Notes under the pieces: generated by a model
Databases searched by the model: none
Told to the model about the DNA's origin: nothing
What the model saw: only the letters and a program-made list of their open reading frames with translations
Made by a program: the position numbers and the translations under genes
Part shown: in pieces, positions 12,831-27,462 of the stretch
Layout: each line of letters begins with the position of its first letter
Numbering within the stretch: the first letter of the stretch is position 1
NCBI RefSeq assembly: GCF_000400955.1
Contig: NC_021284.1
Span: 868,001 to 932,000 of the forward strand
Reading direction: 5' to 3'
From: Spiroplasma syrphidicola EA-1
GTDB lineage: Bacteria > Bacillota_I > Bacilli_A > Mycoplasmatales > Mycoplasmataceae
DNA: 64,000 nucleotides

Positions 12831-13700
12831 ATGGAACTTAATTATATTTTTATTTTATATACATTTCTTATTAGTTTAGGTTTAAACTTAGTGTTTTTTG
12901 TAATTGCGTTCTTATTAAAAAGTGATGCTTTTACAGATATAACATATGCTTTAACTTTTGTTTTAACAACATCAATTATTTTGGGATGAAAACAAAACTT
13001 TTCTTTATTCCAAATCGTTTTATATGTCCTAGTGTTGCTATGAGCAATTAGATTAGGAACTTATTTACTAATTAGAATTATTAAAATTAAAGTTGACCAT
13101 CGTTTTGATAAAATGCGTAATTCATTTTGAAAATTCTTAGGCTTTTGAATTTTACAAGCTATTTCAGTTTTCTTAATAGTTTTACCAACAACATTTGTCT
13201 TATTTATTGATGGAAGTTACTTCGATAGCACAAACTATTACACTTTTATTTTTGTAGGAATTGCGCTATTTGGTTTACTATACGAAACAATTGGGGATGC
13301 GCAAAAATTCGTCTTCTTCCAAAATAAAAAAGGTGAATTTATTCAAACTGGTCTTTGAAAAAGCTCACGCCACCCAAACTATTTTGGCGAAATTGTTTTC
13401 TGAATGTTTTTAACAATTGCTTTTCTATTTAATTTAATTCTAAAAAACTATTCAGACGATAAAATGATTTTATTACAATTATTATGACTATTATCACCTT
13501 TATACATTTTATTTTTACTAAACTTTGTCTCTGGTTTACCATTATTAGAAATTGGTGCTTATAAAAAATTGAAAGATAATGCTGCTTATCAGACTTATGT
13601 TCAAAAAACTAGTGCTATTATTCCCTATTGTGGTAAAAAAGGTCATATCTTACGAGTTAAAAAATTGATGACTAAAGAAAAAAATAACAGTAATGCTTAG
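12831..13700 (+). CDS. DUF1295-family polytopic membrane protein
   Basis: A 289-residue protein with about six to seven spans. The motif GLWKSSRHPNYFGEIVFW is the hallmark of DUF1295 (steroid 5-alpha-reductase-like fold). The C-terminus has GLPLLEIGAYKKLKDNAAY, also as in that family. Eight TGA codons are read as Trp. AAGGAG precedes the ATG, and a TATAAT box lies at 12769-12774. The family probably acts on a lipid; the substrate is unknown. Confidence 0.85.
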
Positions 13701-14662: not shown

Positions 14663-14698
14663 AAAAAAATAGGTGAATTTTTACTCACCTATTTTTTT
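14663..14698 (-). terminator. Terminator after the YwaF-like gene
   Basis: Arms of 14 bp with core ATAGGTGA / TCACCTAT and an 8-base loop, flanked by A7 and T7. It overlaps the stop of the gene to its right. Confidence 0.8.
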
Positions 14699-15479
14699 AT
14701 TTCTTTTTATGAAAATTAATTTTTGCAAAAGCTTTTTCTCATAGAGTATCCCGTAATTTAATTTGATTTCTTACTTTTCAATTTATTTCATAAATTGGTT
14801 TAAAGAAATAAATCACGGCTCAACTTGCTCCTAAGAAAACTGGTCCAGCAACACATAGGACAAAGAGGAATTGCCATCCTTGTGATCATTGTCCTTGCCC
14901 AATTGCACCAATAATGTCATTAAAAATATAATTTACATTATTTCCAAATGTTAAATTATAAACTTCAACTAAGGATAAGATTAATACTCCTGTTAAAACT
15001 GATTTTCAAATTAATTCTTTTGAAAATTTAAATTTTGTTTGCCCATATAAATAAACATAAAAATAGGCATACATTGCAACTAAGTGACCAAAGAAAAATT
15101 GGTAATACCAAAAATTACTAAAAACTAAGGCATCTCAATCTTTTGGCATTAAAATAGTTAATGCTGGTCCAATAATTGCTAATGGAAAAAAAGTATCCAT
15201 TTGGATTTTAGTTGGAAAAATTAAAATAATAATAGCTGATCATTCAACCATATTACATAATTCCAAATAAATATATGAATTAATGTCATGTGGATTATCA
15301 ATTATTCGATTAATAATAAAATATAATTCGACAATTAATAATCAAATAATGCTTGTTGCTCTAATTGATATATTAACATATTTGTTAGCATAAAATTTTG
15401 TAAACATAAATAAACTTGCCATCACAATAAATGAAACAATTACGGCAATAATATGAGCAAATGTAATCAAAATATTCAT
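14697..15479 (-). CDS. YwaF-like (TMEM164-type) membrane protein
   Basis: A 260-residue membrane protein with about six to seven spans. FFPLAIIGPALTILMPKDW and YYQFFFGHLVAMYAYFYV resemble YwaF/TIGR02206 proteins, which carry a conserved His in this position. Eight Trp residues are TGA-coded. It is a single-gene unit with its own terminator. The function of the family in bacteria is not established, and the assignment rests on pattern and topology. Confidence 0.5.
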
Positions 15480-15556: not shown

Positions 15557-15587
15557 ATAGAATTTCTTTTTAAAAAAGAAATTCTAT
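15557..15587 (-). terminator. Terminator of the surface-protein operon
   Basis: Arms ATAGAATTTCTTTTT and AAAAAGAAATTCTAT form a long hairpin followed on the minus strand by eight T residues. Confidence 0.8.
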
Positions 15588-15676
15588 GAAAAATATTTTA
15601 AAAAAATACGAGTACTAACTTATTAAAATTATGTTTTTTATTATATTGCTTAATTCAATAATAGTTAGGATAATGG

Positions 15677-17182
15677 TTATTTTTCTTTATTTCATCTTCC
15701 TCTAATTTTATTTGTTTTATTTTTAACAGCCACTTTTGGTTTACTTTTAATCTCAAATTTAATTGTACTAATTCAGTTCATTTGTATTAAATCATATATT
15801 TTAGAAAAACTAATAAAAAGGAGTGCAAACCAAATAATTAAATAATTGCCTCAAGATAACTGTAGTATTTTTAAATATCCTTCTCCTAGTGAGAAATTTG
15901 TAAAAGCACTAGTCCATATCATCACTCATATTGTATTAAAACTAAAAGGTAAAATACTTCAAATGCTAAAGGAAAGATAATTTTGAACAAGATATGTTTT
16001 TATTTTATTATCTGTATTGTCACTAATTTTTAATCCCCTTGCAATTGTCGGAGTATTTTCAAAACTAACAATTAATAATAATGTAACTCAAAAATGATAT
16101 TTCCCATAACTTTTAATATTACAGTCTAACTGCTTTTCTTCTCATAATGAATTTAAATTTCGCAAAGACAAAATAAGGTGGTTATACTGATAAGTAAATT
16201 CATCAATTATGATAATTACAAAAAATCAAATAAAGCTAGTTAAAACGGCTTCAAAAATACTAACTAAACTATTATTATTAACAAATAAATTTGATTTAAT
16301 TAAGACAAAATAGTTACTATTATAAATAGAAACTACATTAAATAAATCCAAGGTTAGCCCTAACACAATTTGCAACAAAACTAAAATTGGTAGGCAAACT
16401 GTCATTTTTAAATTTAAAATGTAGCAACCTAATAATAGTAAAAATGGTATTAAATTAATTAATAAATTTGTAAAATTAATATCTAAATTATTATTAAAAA
16501 AGGCTTGTGGTGTCATACCAATTGTAAAATATAAAATTGTTAAAACAATTATAATTATTCCAATTACTTTTGCATTAATTCATAGATATTTTTTAACTAA
16601 ACTATCATTTTCTTTACCAATATTTTGATAGTACTGACTGCGAACATTCACAAAATTAGTAATTGTCAAACCACTGATAATTGCACCAAGTCCCATTCAT
16701 AAATTACTATCTACAAAAATGAACGGATAAATTAATAAAATTGGAATAATTATTGCACTAGTTTTTAAATTTGGAATGATTAGTCCTAGCATTAAAGTAA
16801 AAAGAAAAGTTAATCCCACTAAAACAACGGGGGATAATAATTTAAATAATAAGGTTCAAAATCCATATAACCCATAACCTTTAATAAATAAACTTAAGAA
16901 AAGACATAATAATAGTAAATTAATAATTTCTTCAACCGAAGTTTTGTCTTTTTTTTGTAGTTTTATGACATTATTACTTTGTTTAGAAGTAATTAATTTA
17001 ATTAAATAAATTAAAAAACATAAAAATAATAATAAACCAATTAATCCAATAATATTAAAATTAACTAAATCATTTGTAAATTCTATCGTTAAAAAAGCTA
17101 TTAAACCAGAAGTTAAGATTAGAAATAGGATACCCAGAATAATTCAATCAAATAATGTTCTTCTTTTATAAGATTGTAACAT
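15677..17182 (-). CDS. Polytopic membrane protein, last gene of surface operon
   Basis: A 501-residue protein with roughly ten to twelve hydrophobic spans. It is rich in Leu, Ile and Asn and has no motif I recognise. Polar loops include a Lys-rich segment near residue 75-90 and a basic C-terminus (KPKVAVKNKTNKIRGRWNK). Its ATG directly abuts the stop of the secreted-protein gene upstream, so the two are translated from one message. It may anchor or export the secreted partners, but that is inference from position only. Confidence 0.7.
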
Positions 17183-19255
17183 TTATGCTAAGCTCATAAT
17201 TTCATTAATAATTTGTTCAATTTCATTATCATTTGTATATGAATAAGTATGAGTTTCATTATTTTTATCTTTATAAACATAGATATAAACATTAATTGTT
17301 TCAGTTAAAATTTGAATTTGTTCATTAATTCCGGCTTTAATTGCTATTAAGGCAGCGCTATAACTTTCAAAATAGATGTAGGGATCTAATCCTTGTTCCT
17401 GGCGAATTGAACTGAAAATACGATAAACATTATAAACACCATCTTCAATAATATTATCAAAACTCATTGGGTGACCATTTCATGACTCAATTTCCGCCTT
17501 ATTAACATAGCGTCCAGTTAAGCTAATACGATTTTGCAATTGTTTAATAGCATCTTCTGCACTTTCCCCTGAAATTTCAAAACTACCAAATGCATCGTAA
17601 GCAAAATATTGTTTCAATAAAACTCCTGATTCTAATTGGAATAAGCGTTCTTGGGCTTGCGCTTGAGTTGGAGCTAAAGCTAAGCCATCAATTGACGAAA
17701 TATTTTCAACATCTAGATATGTATACATTAAGACAGTATTCATATCTCCTGTTAAGAATAAGTATTGATTTAATTCAGCTGCTGAAGCATAAAAATCTTC
17801 GCGTAATTTATACTTTGTCACACCATTTTCAATAATTGTTTCCCGTTGTAAAATTTCTTGTTTTAAAACAGTGTTATAATAATTGACACTTTCTCGTACT
17901 GAATACTTGTCACCATGGGTTCCGTTAACATCATATAAAGTATCAGCATAAACACCGAAATCATTGTAAGCAATTCCATTTTCATCTTTTTTATCTAAAG
18001 TTAAAAACTGGCGACTATAAAAATTATTAAATCAAATGTCATATGATTGACGAACATATGTTGTTGGAATTTCATTTGGATTTGTAATTTCAATGCCTAT
18101 ATTATCTCAACGATAAATTTGTTGACGAGTAGGGTCATTTTTCACTTTATCATACAAATATAATGTTGCATTATAATCTTGTGATGAAGTTAAAGCATTT
18201 CAATTAAAATCAGTATACTTTCCAAATGATCCTGCTTTTATTGGCAAATAAGTAAAATCATATTGATTTCCTTCTAAATTAATTGTTTTTGTTCAATAGT
18301 ACTTTCCAACTGCTGGGCCAGATTTTTCAAATTTTTGTTGCCACCCCATTTTTGTAGTAAGCTCATCTTTACTTAATTGGTTATGTTTATCCTCAAAAAC
18401 AAAAGTATCACCACGATAATAATCTTGGGTTCTTCCCCTATTAATTGATACTTTAATCATGTCATCCCCACCTGGTGATAAATATATTTTATGATTAACA
18501 TCAGTTTCTAAATAACTCGTATAATTAATTGGAAAGCTAGTACTAGAATCTGTTCAAGTACTTTCAAAATTATTATGAATTGTATCTTTTAAAGTTTCTT
18601 TTGTCCCGTATAAGGTTAAACCTTGGGTAAATTCAGAGGGTTTAACATAATAACCTGAAGTTAATGAGTTTAATAATTTAGCTTGGTCATCTTCATTAAA
18701 AACATTATAATATCTTCCATTAACATAATAATATAATGACTTATGTAATCCACCTTTATAAATAAAACCATTTTTTGCTTCTTCTGGTGAATCAAATCAA
18801 CCAATCCCGTCATAACTATATTGGGCTTTAACAGAGCCAGCATTAGTATAAGTATTTAAAGCGGCCTGTTTTGTTAAAGCTGTATTGCCATACGCATCAC
18901 GGTATACAAGTTGAAAATTATTAAAATCCGTATCATAAATTTTATCGGCTTTTAAAGTACGATATTGATAATCTTCAATAATTTTTCCCGGATTCGAAGA
19001 AGTTTGAATAGTTTCAATTTTGCTACTCTGATAAATATAATTATCTAAATCAGTTTGGGAATAAAAAACATGATTATCATAACTATATTTTGTTTTTGTT
19101 GATTTCACTGTTGATGAGGATTTAATTGTTTGAAATAAAGCCTCTCGAGGGGATGTTACTTCACTATTTTCATTTATTACCGACGCACTTACACCAACTG
19201 GTGTTGTTGTTAAAATTGTTGACGCTAAAATTGTTTTTAAAAGATTAATTGCCAT
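17183..19255 (-). CDS. Large secreted surface protein with aromatic repeat modules
   Basis: A 690-residue protein with an N-terminal signal-like segment (MAINLLKTILASTILTT) and no lipobox Cys. The rest is hydrophilic and very rich in Tyr and Asn. Short modules recur in which an aromatic, glycine-containing strand is followed by an acidic helix, for example YSYDGIGWFDSPEEAKNGF, YYYVNGRYYNVFNEDDQAK and LVYRDAYGNTALTKQAAL. Similar modules occur in the gene upstream, so the two are probably paralogues. The ATG overlaps the end of that gene by 11 bases with GGGGAGG upstream. I do not recognise a family; adhesin or other surface role is inferred. Confidence 0.75.
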
Positions 19256-22012
19256 GATTCAAAACCTCCCCTGCTGCATTAACTAATTGGGTACTTTCTT
19301 CAATTCATTTATAAAAGTCACTTTCATTTGTAAAACGTTGGTTACCAAAATAGACAAAGTAATTTACAACCGTATCATGGTGATATGTAATATCGACGTG
19401 ATTATAGACATAAACAAAGGCATCGTTATAAGTATAAAAATAACGATATTGGCCACCAAATAAGACACCATAAACTTTATTTTTTAACCCAAATTGTTCT
19501 TTTAAGCGATCATAATCAATTGAACTAATTAAATCACTTGATAAAACTGTTTTTGATTCAAGAATATTATTAATAATATAATTGCGTTGATCAGCTATTA
19601 AAGCTTCAGGAGTATCATAATAACGATTAATTCCTTCTAAATCACGGTATTTATATTGAATGATAAATTGATTATTAGTAATTTTTTCTTGCATACTTTT
19701 AATAGCATCAATTGGATTATTAAATCAGCCATCAATGCCATCAAAATATTGACTAATTACTGTATTAGCAAAATGCTTGGTAAAAATATACTCAATAAAT
19801 TTTTCTAATTTATTATAGCCATCATCGGGATCTTCACTATTAACAGGAAGTTCTTCTTGATCAACTTCTCCCATTACATTAATATAATATTGTCTTGTAT
19901 CAATAAAATCTGTGGGATTAGAAATAATGTATTCTTTTAAGTATTTTTGCGCTGATGATAGTGAAGTAAATAAACTTCCTAAAACAACATATAACTGGGC
20001 ATTAGTGTCATTAGTAATGCTCCCATTATCAAAAACACTAATCATTTGGACATGTTTGCTAAAGTCTTGACCTCATATTCTTCCAAAAACTGGAAGACTT
20101 ATCTCTGTTGTTGTATAGTATAAAACTTGGCCATTACCAAAATCATTTTGATAAGTTACAAAGTCAAAAATCGAAATTAGACTGCCAATATTTCATATGG
20201 CTTTAGCCATTTGTAAGCCATTCATCATTTTACCTAAGCCTTTTAATAATTTTGATCCAAGTTTAGCAGGATCAGTTCAAAATTTTGAGCCTTCTTTATC
20301 AAACTTAACCATTGATTTAAAATTCTTTTTAAGAGCATCAAATGCTTCTTCTTTTGTATACTTTTCGCCACCAAACATATAGTATTCTGTTCCACCTTCA
20401 AAAACGGTTTCTAATTTATCTACCATCATTTTGACTTCAGCATCTTCAAGATTTCCTTTTTCCCCAACAAGTTTACCAATGTTATCAAGCGCTCCAAATA
20501 ATTCATCACCAATTTTTTGGACTTTTTCAATGATTCCTTGTAAGGCATTACCTTTTGCAGGTGATTGATACATAAACTGTGAAGGGGAAATGAACATTTG
20601 AATTACATCTGTTAACGTCAATTCAGTTTCTGACTCTAATTTTGTTTGATCTTTAAACAACTCATCAATTACGCTATCATACAAACTAGTATTTGCTCTA
20701 ATAATATTTTTGATTAATTGTTTTAAAAAATTAATAAAATCTAATACTGGTTTTGGATCAGAATGATTTACTGTTAATGTATAGCCATAAACCTTTTGGA
20801 TAAATAATAAAGTTTTTTTAAAATTATCCATTCCGTTAATTTTGTTTAAGGTATTAACTATATCATTATATTTAAAACCACTATTTCTGTCATTATATTC
20901 TTTATAATTTGCCTTTTGAAATTTTTCTTTAAAATTATCCCTTATCTTTTTATCATTCATAAATAAGTCTTTTTCAATATCTCATGATTTTGGTTCTGCT
21001 TCTTTTGAATTCATCATCAAATTAATTAAACTTGAAGCAACAACTAAATTATTTAAAACTGCATTAATACTATTTGAATTAGTTTTTTTCAGCCATTCAT
21101 TAATTTATTCTGAAAAACATCTTGGGAATCATCAGATTCAATATATTGTGTTCCACTAAATGAACCAATTAATCCTATTGAATCTATGTTTAATCAATAA
21201 GATTTTTTAAAAGGTTTATACAATTGAATATTTTTTTCTTCATCACGTTGAATTAATTTTAGCTTTGAAATATCTGGTAAATTACGATTTGATCAACGAA
21301 AGCCATTGTAATCATATTGAATATCTGTTGTTGATCGAATTCAATCGGAAACTTGGTCTTTTGTTAAACAAGTTCCTGCCATTGTGTAACATTTGGTTGT
21401 ATTATTATCTTTTAAATTTTGTTGGACAATATTTTCTAAATATTGAATTGCACCATAACGATTAGCAAATTCAACTGTTCCATTATCACCATTTGGAGAA
21501 TTATTAATGCTTCCTAATTTATATACTTTTTGATAACTTTGATGGGTTGCAATAGCTTCATTAATATCTAAATATGCATTACCATCTTTACCCCGATAAA
21601 CAGTTGTTAATTTATCATTTTGGGTTGTTAATACTTGATTTGATATTTCTCCCGCACTGTTTATGACATATTCAGCAGGATTACGATAAGTTTCAAAAGC
21701 TTGAATTGGAAATTGACTAGCAATATCATTTTCTAAAACATTATGTTGAGATAAATCATAGGCTTTATTGTTATATAAATAATAATCATTTTCAATTTGG
21801 TAAGATTCTTTTTGTGCTTTATTATTTGCATATTGGATTAATTCGGTATTTGATTTAAAGACTTGACCATCAAATTTGTAATAAGCATTTTCTTTTGTTT
21901 TAACATGAGCAACTACAGTGGAAATTGATGCAACTACAGTACCAGTAGTTAGTACACAAAGCGCACTAAAAACAGAAACTAATCGTTTCGATTTTAAAAT
22001 TTTAAATTTCAT
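19245..22012 (-). pseudogene. Large secreted surface protein, frameshifted at a poly-A run
   Basis: The gene has a signal-like N-terminus (MKFKILKSKRLVSVFSALC) and would encode about 922 residues if repaired. The first frame runs 22012 to a TAA at 21053 (319 residues). The rest continues in another frame to 19245 with no further stop. The shift falls at a run of seven A residues (minus strand, about 21083-21089) after NKLMNGW; adding one A joins the halves as NGWKKTNSNSINAVLNN. Modules like those of the next gene recur (YYKFDGQVFKSNTELIQY, YMFGGEKYTKEEAFDALKK, YKYRDLEGINRYYDTPEAL). It may be a true pseudogene, a phase-variable gene or an assembly error. An ATG at 21017 could start a separate downstream product. 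Confidence 0.72.
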
Positions 22013-22027
22013 ATTTATTTTTAAAAA

Positions 22028-22918
22028 CTAGTATAACTCAACTAAAATATTTCCTGTTGCATCAGATTTTATAGTTGGCTCATTAATATAAGAAAATGTT
22101 CCATCAATTCTTTCGACAAATTTATTTTCATCCTTAAGTTTTCCAATAAATTCATATTTTTTTACGTCTAAAGATAATTTATAGTCATCATAAAATCAAA
22201 ATGATTCTGAGTTATTATTCTTATCACTTAATAGTAGTGTAAGTTCATTTGAAATATTAATTTTTGCATTTTCATTATTACTTTCGCTATAATTACTAAT
22301 ATTCTGTTCTGTTAAAGCATCTCCTACTGAACCTAAACTAAAATAACTAAGACCTTGTTTTTTAATACCAACTAATGATGTTTCCGCACTAAAAAAATAC
22401 TTTGAGAATTCTTTTATTCAATCAGTTCTATTATAAATTCCTGTAGTTTTAAAATTTAGCATTAAATTTGTGTAATTAAAAATAATTGCACCAAACTCAT
22501 TTTTTTCTTGAAATGTAATTGAAAAATTTATTTTATAATCTGTATCATATTCAAAACCTTTCATTCCATCTAAACTTGGTACTACAGAAATAAAGTAATT
22601 TTCAGGAATATAGTTAAAAGTTTCAATAAATTTTGGTCTAATTAAATTATCAAAAAGATAGATAGTGGCAATGCGAATTGCTGTTACAATTTCATTTTGG
22701 CTCTCTTCATTTTGGTCCTTAAGATCTTTAAAGAAAAATTCACCTTCATAATTTCAAGTGTTATTTTCCGCAAAATATTTTGTTAGATTTTCTTTATTAA
22801 TTTCTAATTTTTCTTGTACTGGATTCGTTGCATTTTCATTTGTTCCACATCCAACTAAAGGCGTTGTTGCTGAACTAACTAATGTAATTACTCCTAATAA
22901 TGATAATAATTTTTTCAT
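22028..22918 (-). CDS. Lipoprotein, first gene of surface operon
   Basis: A 296-residue protein with a lipoprotein signal: MKKLLSLLGVITLVSS and lipobox PLVGC, so Cys24 would be lipidated. The mature part is hydrophilic, rich in Asn, Glu and Phe, with no family I recognise. It ends in TAG 15 bases before the next gene. It is the first gene of a four-gene surface unit; the long upstream region suits a promoter. Confidence 0.78.
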
Positions 22919-23243
22919 ACTCTAGTAGTATCCTTTCTTAAATTAAATATATTAATAGTTTTTGATATTATTGATAATTGATAAATTAATAAGTGCTATT
23001 TTGTATTAATACTTTTTAACCCTATTAAACGTGGATATGTGTTATTTATTAAATAACATGACATAATTATCTCTATTATAATAACAAATTATACAACCAA
23101 ATTGCAATAATAATTTTCTAAAATTTAATTATAATTTAAAATTTTTTATGATATTTCCAAAACTTTTCTTTTTATTATTTATATAAACAAAAGAAAAAAC
23201 TAAGTTATCTTTCCTTTCCGATAATCTTAGTTTTAAATTTTTC
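22919..23243. other. Intergenic region with operon promoter area
   Basis: About 325 AT-rich bases without a credible gene. The right part holds the terminator at 23196-23234; the left part must contain the promoter of the lipoprotein operon, with several possible -10 boxes and none clearly best. An inverted pair around TTATTTATTAAATAA (about 23043-23057) is visible. Confidence 0.5.
23196..23234 (-). terminator. Terminator of the 401-residue membrane protein gene
   Basis: Arms AAAACTAAGTTATC and GATAATCTTAGTTTT pair with one bulge, followed on the minus strand by TTTTTTCTTTTG. Confidence 0.75.
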
Positions 23244-25857: not shown

Positions 25858-26721
25858 TTAGCGACGAACATTTCAACGGAAAGAAAACTTAGCTAAAAAA
25901 GTAAAAAATGAGAGAAACAAAATAATCGCTAGAACTGGTTGCCATGAAGCTGTAAAATAGTGATATAACTCAGTTGAATAACCTGTTCCGGTATTAAATT
26001 GGGCTTCCCAGCTAGTACCAGTAATTGCATAAAGAATTAAAAAGATTGGATATTTATGGGGAATAAAATAAGTTATTACCCTTACCCCTAAGGTATCACT
26101 AATTAATGGTGGATAAACCAAAACTCCTGATAGTAAAATTGTTAAAATATAAATAATAATTGCAACCGAATTGGTAATTCCTTCGTTACTAAAAATTCCT
26201 CCGATCAAAAAGGCAATTGTAACCGACAAGAGAATCGCGGCAATTATCCCTAGTAAAAGATAACCTCAGTTAGTTGCTTTTAAAGCTTCGATAAAATTAT
26301 GACCACCAATAATAATTGCAATTATCATTTCAAAAAAAACAGCAATCAAACCTAGTGATAGATAATAAATTAGTAGTAGAAAAAGAAATGTCCCCTTTTT
26401 AATTCCTGTCGCATCAATCCGTTTTAAAAAAACAGATTTTTTTCAATCAACTAAGGTTGTTGATAAAGACACAATAATACTTAACGTTGGTAATAACATA
26501 TAAATAAAAAGAGTCAATGTCCGAATTGCTATCCCGTTGCTATTACCGGGATAGATATTAAAAACATAGTAAAAAATAATTAAAAAAATCGTTGGGATAA
26601 CAAAAATAAAAATTGGCCCCCGTTTTTCACGGAAAAATGATTTATTAATTAGCAACATTAATTCTTGAAAAATTGAAAAATTAGCGCGAAAATTATTTTT
26701 TTTATTTACTTTTGTCTGCAT
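25858..26721 (-). CDS. ABC-2 type transporter permease
   Basis: A 287-residue membrane protein with about six spans. It shares the KSVFLKRIDAT block with the two permeases at 5219-6936, so it is a distant paralogue. Here only one permease accompanies the ATPase. The ATG overlaps the stop codon of the ATPase gene by one base (TAATG), indicating coupled translation. Substrate is unknown. Confidence 0.78.
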
Positions 26722-27425
26722 TATTTTATTTCTCCTTTAAAATATAAATTCATTAAATTTCGAATTGAACCAAATTGAGCTTTTGCTTCCGCCATTGAAC
26801 AATCTAACAAAATTGATTTGTTACCAAATAATAAAATTCGGTTACATAGCATTTCAACTTCTTCAGGATGATGCGAAACAATCAACAAAGTTTTATTGTT
26901 ATTAACAATATATTCATTAAAAAAACTTACAATTTTATATTGCAATTCAATATCCAACCCCGTTGTTAATTCATCTAAAATAACAATTTCTGGATCATTG
27001 ATAACTGCCAACATAGCATTAAAGCGCTGCTTTTGGCCACCAGACAGTTTTTGTAAATTAATATTTTTAATTTTATCCAATTCAAAAACTTCCTCAAGCA
27101 TCTTTTCATAAGCTGGGGAAAAATTTTCATAAACCTTACGATAGAACTTAATCATATCCTTAATCCGAATCCCAATTGGCCAGTTTCCTTCTTGATATTG
27201 AATCCCAATATCCTTTTTAACATTCCCTGACAAATTAATCTTAATTTCACCCGCCGTTGGTTTTGAAAAGCTTGAGATCATTTCAACAAATGTTGTTTTC
27301 CCACAACCATTAGCTCCTAAAATTGCCACACGATCACCAGCGAACACTTCGACATTAATATCTTTTAAAACCTCATTTTTTTGATAACTTTTAAATAAAT
27401 TTTTAACTTCAATAATTGCTGACAT
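26721..27425 (-). CDS. ABC transporter ATP-binding protein (exporter)
   Basis: A 234-residue ATPase with Walker A GANGCGKTT, Q-loop IGIQYQEGNWPIG, signature LSGGQKQR, Walker B IVILDELTTGLD and H-loop VSHHPEEVE. I chose ATG 27425 because AAAGGAG precedes it; the in-frame ATG at 27458 has no ribosome site and falls in a TATAAT box that looks like the promoter. It resembles the ATPase at 6929-7666 and pairs with the single permease downstream. Confidence 0.9.
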   Translation of the reverse strand: MSAIIEVKNLFKSYQKNEVLKDINVEVFAGDRVAILGANGCGKTTFVEMISSFSKPTAGEIKINLSGNVKKDIGIQYQEGNWPIGIRIKDMIKFYRKVYENFSPAYEKMLEEVFELDKIKNINLQKLSGGQKQRFNAMLAVINDPEIVILDELTTGLDIELQYKIVSFFNEYIVNNNKTLLIVSHHPEEVEMLCNRILLFGNKSILLDCSMAEAKAQFGSIRNLMNLYFKGEIK

Positions 27426-27456
27426 ATTTCTGTTCTCCTTTGTTAAAATTTCACTC

Positions 27457-27462
27457 ATTATA
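27457..27462 (-). promoter_or_regulatory. -10 box of the ABC-2 operon
   Basis: TATAAT on the minus strand, 32 bases before the chosen ATG. No clear -35 box is visible. Its position argues against starting the ATPase at 27458. Confidence 0.45.

What the first reader, a model, noticed from the sequence alone, without database searches (positions are those of the whole stretch)
15677..22918. Four-gene surface operon: lipoprotein, two giant secreted repeat proteins, polytopic membrane protein
Genes are 15 bases apart, overlapping by 11 bases, or directly adjacent, and end at one strong terminator. The lipoprotein and both large proteins carry export signals; the last protein has about ten to twelve spans. 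I recognise no known family in any of the four. Such a coupled set suggests an exported complex with its own membrane partner. This is the best candidate in the window for an undescribed system.
Basis: partly seen in the sequence, partly recalled or inferred. Interest (0 to 1): 0.7.

Follow-up and report, generated by a model that had tools for sequence, protein, structure and literature searches.

The report
Paired surface proteins with membrane partner
A block of genes in an insect-associated bacterium encodes a lipoprotein, two related exported proteins and a transporter-like membrane protein that recur together in related bacteria, so it is probably an undescribed surface system, although one of its genes is interrupted in this strain.

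Summary
The operon is real (15677-22918, minus strand) and behaves as one unit: a sister genome lacks about 7.5 kb with exactly these genes. Genes: lipoprotein A, BC (two frames here), D, E. No Pfam or NCBIfam family over cut-off matches A (beyond its signal peptide), B, C or D. BC and D are paralogues. Co-occurrence holds: all 15 full-length E genes found in 60 family genomes sit directly behind a D gene or remnant. An A-family gene adjoins BC in 14 of 14 E-type loci with BC, in six on the opposite strand. E is NhaC-related but lacks the aligned GDD. Another family of the order holds a remote BC-D pair, usually with an ABC transporter instead. Best reading: a surface attachment or capture complex built on a conserved secreted pair, with variable lipoproteins and an exchangeable membrane partner. 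No function has been shown.

The parts
23078..23107 (-). candidate promoter (TTGCAA, 18 nt, TATTAT with TG before it) upstream of A
   Evidence: consensus match only, such sites are as frequent in shuffles
22028..22918 (-). A: lipoprotein, 296 aa
   Evidence: LP_plasma 7.6e-7; family profile without the signal peptide hits 16 of 50 sequences searched
21053..22012 (-). B: N-terminal part of BC, 319 aa, N-terminal hydrophobic span
   Evidence: BC profile positions 7-309
21083..21089 (-). A7 run where the frame changes by -1 from B to C
19245..21104 (-). C: remainder of BC in the -1 frame (open frame)
   Evidence: BC profile positions 307-931
17183..19255 (-). D: exported protein, 690 aa, paralogue of BC
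   Evidence: GGGGAGG ahead of its ATG
15677..17182 (-). E: polytopic membrane protein, 501 aa, NhaC-related
15557..15587 (-). intrinsic terminator behind E
   Evidence: z -4.18
15574..23121 (.). segment present here and absent in the sister genome (empty site in L179)
   Evidence: window to 15573 matches L179 to 8663, window from 23122 matches L179 from 8657

Best explanation
The operon encodes a surface system of mollicutes. A is a surface lipoprotein, the part that is amplified and diverges. BC and D are paralogous exported proteins that stand together on the membrane as a paired scaffold. E, an NhaC-related membrane protein that does not keep NhaC's aligned GDD, is their membrane platform. 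The whole most likely attaches to, or captures, something outside the cell (host surface or nutrient polymer). In another family of the order a remote version of the pair is mostly accompanied by an ABC transporter instead of E. Shown by computation: gene order, co-occurrence, homology of BC with D, homology of E with NhaC-type proteins, remote relatives beside an ABC transporter, presence or absence as a unit. Inferred: that the proteins form one complex, that they are surface-exposed, and any binding role.
For: E: 12 of 60 family genomes; all 15 full-length E copies lie within about 25 nt of a D gene or D remnant. The E profile contains rows picked by their place behind D, but the single-protein search, which knew nothing of place, found E in 8 of 148 genomes, each at one of these places. 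D: 24 of 60 genomes. A profile (signal removed, built from 15 genes of 12 of these loci): 40 hits in 16 of 50 sequences searched, 14 being the E-type loci with BC and 2 being A + BC-fragment remnants; none in loci without E. On a tree of 21 D proteins one branch (100/100) separates the 11 with E from the 10 without. BC and D align in the same order at both ends (93.2%, E 3e-7; 74.0%, E 2.8e-5). E profile hits four NhaC-type proteins at 3e-19 to 1e-16, best of the other 58 polytopic ORFs 0.47, hhalign 95.7-96.3% against at most 0.8% among the 19 others listed; best of 300 shuffles 0.43. Remote pair: D profile 98.0%, E 1.7e-13; BC profile 97.7%, E 1.6e-12, with an ABC ATPase in 10 of 12 regions. 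A lipoprotein-like ORF is also next to 14 of 16 no-E loci.
Against: No experiment and no usable structure: D model pLDDT 34.2, BC C-terminal model 51.1. BC is frame-shifted in this very genome, and 3 of 14 E-type BC genes are not one frame. The unit is absent in the sister. In 6 of 14 E-type loci A lies on the opposite strand, so it is not in one operon there. A-like lipoproteins also occur elsewhere (G000:C1:79585-80382). The four NhaC-type proteins are close relatives of one another (70-94% identity for three of them), so they count as one match, and the E-NhaC comparison is strongly composition-biased; one short unrelated ORF (L131, 179 aa) also scored 6.8e-5 there. Lipoproteins of the remote loci are not detectably related to A, and E is not related to the ABC permease, so the exchange of partner rests on position alone. 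D matches its remote relatives over the N-terminal 149 columns only.
Confidence: 0.5

Rival explanations
1. A decaying surface-protein island: useful in other species, but inactive here because BC is broken.
For: Frame shift in BC; absent in the sister genome; broken copies elsewhere, e.g. S. poulsonii L169, G082, G157, G160.
Against: A, D and E are intact and full length and the two frames together cover the BC profile; an A7 indel can also be a sequencing error or reversible slippage.
Confidence: 0.2
2. Plain adhesins or variable surface antigens (A, BC, D), with E an unrelated transporter that happens to sit in the operon.
For: N-terminal export signals, lipoprotein arrays beside many loci; a whole clade of loci without E.
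Against: No full-length E was found away from D in 60 genomes and E marks one clade of D; remote loci also mostly carry a membrane transporter beside the two proteins.
Confidence: 0.15
3. Nutrient uptake: A binds a substrate, BC and D present or process it, E imports it as an ion-coupled carrier.
For: E is NhaC-related; a lipoprotein next to a carrier is a common uptake layout (recalled).
Against: The aligned GDD of NhaC is not conserved in E; no enzyme domain over cut-off in BC or D. For the remote ATPase the best 25 of 192 NCBIfam matches mix SufC, export and import models, none over its cut-off, so direction is open.
Confidence: 0.1
4. Programmed -1 frameshifting at A AAA AAA makes a short B and a long BC on purpose.
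For: The slippery heptamer is in the zero frame of B and C is in the -1 frame; a stand-alone B-like ORF of 326 aa exists in G052.
Against: Downstream RNA folds no better than shuffles (z 0.06); relatives read straight through the same place; B-like pieces are explained by tandem duplication of the lipoprotein with its neighbour's start.
Confidence: 0.05

Closest known systems
ScARP/SARP1 sarpin adhesins of Spiroplasma citri
   Same: Exported Spiroplasma proteins of 683-861 aa, most with 39-42 aa repeats, linked to adhesion and entry (PMC2386487, PMC3485318; passages)
   Different: ScARPs are plasmid-encoded with a C-terminal membrane helix; BC and D are chromosomal and paired, with no tblastn match in 72,556 plasmid records (with BC of G061, 34 with D). 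Sarpin sequence itself was not compared.
Adhesion-related cluster P58/P12/P54/P123/P18
   Same: Multi-gene Spiroplasma surface locus gained and lost between species
   Different: Reported absent from S. eriocheiris (PMC4607517, passage), whose genome (G112 by exact length) holds A, BC, D and E; sequences were not compared
NhaC-type Na+/H+ antiporters (PF03553)
   Same: E profile aligns over nearly the whole length
   Different: E has no Pfam hit to PF03553 of its own and lacks the aligned GDD
MIB-MIP arrays of mycoplasmas (recalled)
   Same: Paired large surface proteins with duplicated neighbours and an energising membrane partner (recalled)
   Different: No matching family name in the Pfam and NCBIfam scans that were run

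Membership tests
ScARP / sarpin adhesins | sarpin repeats of 39-42 aa with the published consensus | not tested
   consensus is in a figure not held; ScARP sequences were not fetched
ScARP / sarpin adhesins | sequence kinship to plasmid-borne ScARPs | tested here: inconclusive
   no tblastn match of BC (from G061) or D in 72,556 plasmid records; presence of the pSci plasmids in the set was not checked
ScARP / sarpin adhesins | C-terminal transmembrane helix | tested here: not met
   hydropathy finds no span in C or D of the window and only the N-terminal one in B
P58/P123 adhesion-related cluster | species distribution: reported absent from S. eriocheiris | tested here: not met
   G112 (1,365,714 b, the length given for S. 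eriocheiris) has A, BC, D and E; no sequence comparison
NhaC-type antiporter (PF03553) | homology over nearly the full length | tested here: met
   profile positions 11-483 of 491 on L201 and 13-471 on L211, two separate parts on L200 and L209; controls
NhaC-type antiporter (PF03553) | match over the curated Pfam cut-off | tested here: not met
   0 Pfam families for E of the window; no PF03553 among the families listed for 14 E members
NhaC-type antiporter (PF03553) | GDD in the aligned helix (importance recalled) | tested here: not met
   GDDLS of NhaC aligns with gniiv of the E consensus
MIB-MIP | Pfam/NCBIfam domains of MIB or MIP (names recalled) | tested here: not met
   none listed for BC and D members in Pfam or BC members in NCBIfam, nor for the window proteins

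The most novel reading that the evidence does not exclude
A previously undescribed mollicute surface machine: a conserved pair of paralogous secreted proteins driven by an interchangeable membrane engine (ABC transporter in one family, a repurposed NhaC-fold protein in Spiroplasma, none seen in a second Spiroplasma group), with lipoproteins as the fast-changing contact part.
Probability: 0.3. Interest if true: 0.8.

Novelty: new variant of a known kind. Interest (0 to 1): 0.58.

Why it matters
Orphan surface proteins take up much of many mollicute genomes and are thought to govern host contact (general knowledge). Here four of them can be tied into one heritable unit with relatives in two families, a recognisable membrane partner and natural presence/absence between sister species, which makes the function testable.

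Tried and rejected
Family searches with single proteins and with members of alignments gave only matches below the curated cut-offs, such as DUF386 for B (0.003) and ABC_toxin_N for one BC member (0.0029); NCBIfam was run on BC members and on the window proteins, not on the other D or E members. PDB sequence searches were run for the BC and D profiles only and gave nothing below E 0.16. No plasmid or phage record matches D, no plasmid record matches BC. The genome-contig scan found only two S. poulsonii loci. Structure of D (3 rows, pLDDT 34.2) and of the BC C-terminus (4 rows, pLDDT 51.1) were too poor to search; no fold search was run. A hint that the remote lipoproteins resemble A rested on 17 columns near the lipobox (25.9%) and was rejected; so was E against the ABC permease (19.6%, 57 columns). 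Programmed frameshifting was considered and found unsupported. ABC genes elsewhere in the window (25858-27458) were not taken as partners: ABC matches in other loci vary in place and are weak. Rows dropped: the D tree used 21 D proteins chosen from those in single open frames; L132, L133, L138, L146, L152, L153, L163, the third group (L160-L162, L202-L208) and the broken copies were left out. The lipoprotein pattern is rough: in the window it marks 4 of 54 ORFs, one of them the ABC ATPase at 26721-27458 and one of them B. Paper searches: (no paper); none of the listings or passages seen describes this operon, but only openly licensed papers are held.

Full report
What is there. The window lies at 868001-932000 of a 1,107,344-base genome, the length printed for Spiroplasma syrphidicola EA-1 in PMC4607517 (passage). 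On the minus strand, read with code 4, the operon runs A (lipoprotein, 22028-22918), B (21053-22012), C (open frame 21104-19245), D (17183-19255) and E (15677-17182). A hairpin with a U-run follows E. A promoter candidate lies at 23107-23078, but the scan has no power in this AT-rich sequence.

The missed frame shift. B and C are one gene in most relatives. In the window the reading frame changes by -1 at an A7 run at 21083-21089. The BC profile is covered at positions 7-309 by B and 307-931 by C. Of 14 loci of the E-bearing type that have BC, 11 have BC as one frame and 3 do not (this one, G082, G157). The zero frame of B carries an A AAA AAA heptamer, but the RNA behind it folds no better than shuffles (z 0.06), and the relatives shown read straight through. 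A slippage mutation, a sequencing error or phase switching fit better than programmed frameshifting; reads would decide.

One unit. The sister genome G132 (length of S. chrysopicola DF-1) matches the window at 89-93% on both sides and lacks the stretch from about 15574 to 23121. That stretch holds the promoter candidate, all the genes and the half of the terminator next to E. The left flank of the sister has a further difference of its own: about 1.3 kb more between window positions 13700 and 13703. Whether the operon was gained here or lost there is not settled. Nine neighbouring proteins were sought near the other loci; only weak ABC and DegV matches came up, but those regions are short. Both sister genomes keep a second, E-less BC-D pair elsewhere (L129, L152).

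Co-occurrence. In 60 genomes of the family, a D profile hits 24 genomes and an E profile 12; all 12 also have D. All 15 full-length E copies start within about 25 nt of a D gene or its remnant (G079). Of three further, weaker hits one is a partial E (G067) and two are NhaC proteins. Some rows of the E profile had been picked by their place behind D; the earlier single-protein search (8 of 148 genomes) used no such knowledge and found E only at such places. Lipoprotein A, searched without its signal peptide by a profile from 15 genes of 12 loci, gives 40 hits in 16 of 50 sequences. Fourteen are the E-type loci with BC, and two (L137, L144) are A plus a fragment of BC. None of the E-less loci has it, nor has L151 (G079, E with a D remnant). 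In eight of the 14 loci A is on the strand of BC; in six (G026, G067 twice, G052 three times) it points away. Genome-wide, A-like genes also occur apart, such as G000:C1:79585-80382. E-less loci have other lipoproteins: by a rough lipobox pattern 14 of 16 have one next door, against 58 of 298 other ORFs in these regions; for E-type loci the pattern finds 11 of 14, and the A profile covers the other three. On a tree of 21 D proteins one branch (100/100) separates the 11 with E from the 10 without.

What the parts are. BC and D are relatives of each other: profile comparison aligns 159 N-terminal columns (93.2%, E 3e-7) and 186 C-terminal columns (74.0%, E 2.8e-5) in the same order. By eye and by a loose pattern both are strings of hairpin-helix units, and the weak models show similar secondary structure, but self-comparison does not reach significance. 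E is related to NhaC-type antiporters: its profile scores four of them at 3e-19 to 1e-16, two over nearly the whole length and two in two parts. These four are close kin of one another, so they are one match rather than four. The best of 58 other polytopic ORFs scores 0.47 and the best of 300 shuffles 0.43. Among 939 ORFs of all kinds one short ORF (L131, 179 aa) also scored 6.8e-5. Composition bias is high in this comparison, which is why the controls matter. The GDDLS of NhaC faces 'gniiv' in E, so an ordinary antiporter is doubtful.

Remote relatives. The D profile was run over 395 genomes drawn from the class: 18 hit, 17 in the same family and one outside, G062 (E 3.1e-4). There an ABC ATPase, a 569 aa membrane protein, an 1178 aa and a 776 aa exported protein form an operon. 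A search with the 776 aa protein found matches in 10 of 135 genomes of that family, G062 included, some of them weak. Regions from 9 of these 10 were fetched. Profiles from these loci (12 and 8 proteins) match D (98.0%, E 1.7e-13, N-terminal 149 columns only) and BC (97.7%, E 1.6e-12; C-terminus 82.4%, E 1e-5). An ABC ATPase lies in 10 of 12 regions; the other two end at a contig edge inside the pair. Gene order varies (L252, L253, L254). Lipoproteins stand beside D in most of them, in several cases in arrays with copies of the end of D. In Spiroplasma such arrays carry the start of BC. In both cases the lipoprotein is what multiplies, and pieces of its neighbour come along.

How it probably works. 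A pair of exported paralogues forms a scaffold on the membrane, lipoproteins provide the variable outer contact, and a membrane protein anchors or drives it. In Spiroplasma that partner is E; in the other family an ABC transporter is found beside the pair. The likely job is attachment to host surfaces or capture of material outside the cell. Only the comparative genetics is shown.

Comparison with the known. Sarpin adhesins (PMC2386487, PMC3485318; passages) are the nearest in kind but are plasmid-borne with a C-terminal anchor. The P58/P123 cluster is reported absent from S. eriocheiris (PMC4607517), whose genome by length (G112) has the operon. No listing or passage seen describes this operon; passages were also read in PMC5266718, PMC8208695, PMC9666726 and PMC4398514.

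Verdict. It is probably an undescribed surface system of a familiar kind, worth experimental follow-up.

Noticed in passing
L169 6640-12068, L170 8052-10700 (S. poulsonii): Broken E-less copies of BC and D, ORFs that look like transposase pieces (by eye) just upstream, and after both copies a 561 aa exported protein with an HEMGH motif (Pfam M91 at E 0.0066 for the L169 copy, below cut-off).
   Followed up: partly
L134 12219-15139, L135 12468-14140, L137, L144, L148 5829-6773: Extra copies of lipoprotein A with roughly the first 200-340 residues of BC attached: looks like tandem duplication of the lipoprotein with a piece of its neighbour.
   Followed up: partly
L165 (G076), L251 (G065), L248, L255: Arrays alternating a lipoprotein with short ORFs that repeat the C-terminal end of D.
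   Followed up: no
L160-L162, L202-L208: A third, more distant group of BC-D pairs in G026, G052, G067, G157, G160 and G020.
   Followed up: no
window 14697-15479: TMEM164-like membrane protein (PF14808, 3.2e-27) next to the operon; the sister genome G132 has 8 hits to it, an unexpected expansion.
   Followed up: no
L148 12315-13492: D is interrupted by about 1.2 kb that holds a 195 aa ORF on the other strand.
   Followed up: no
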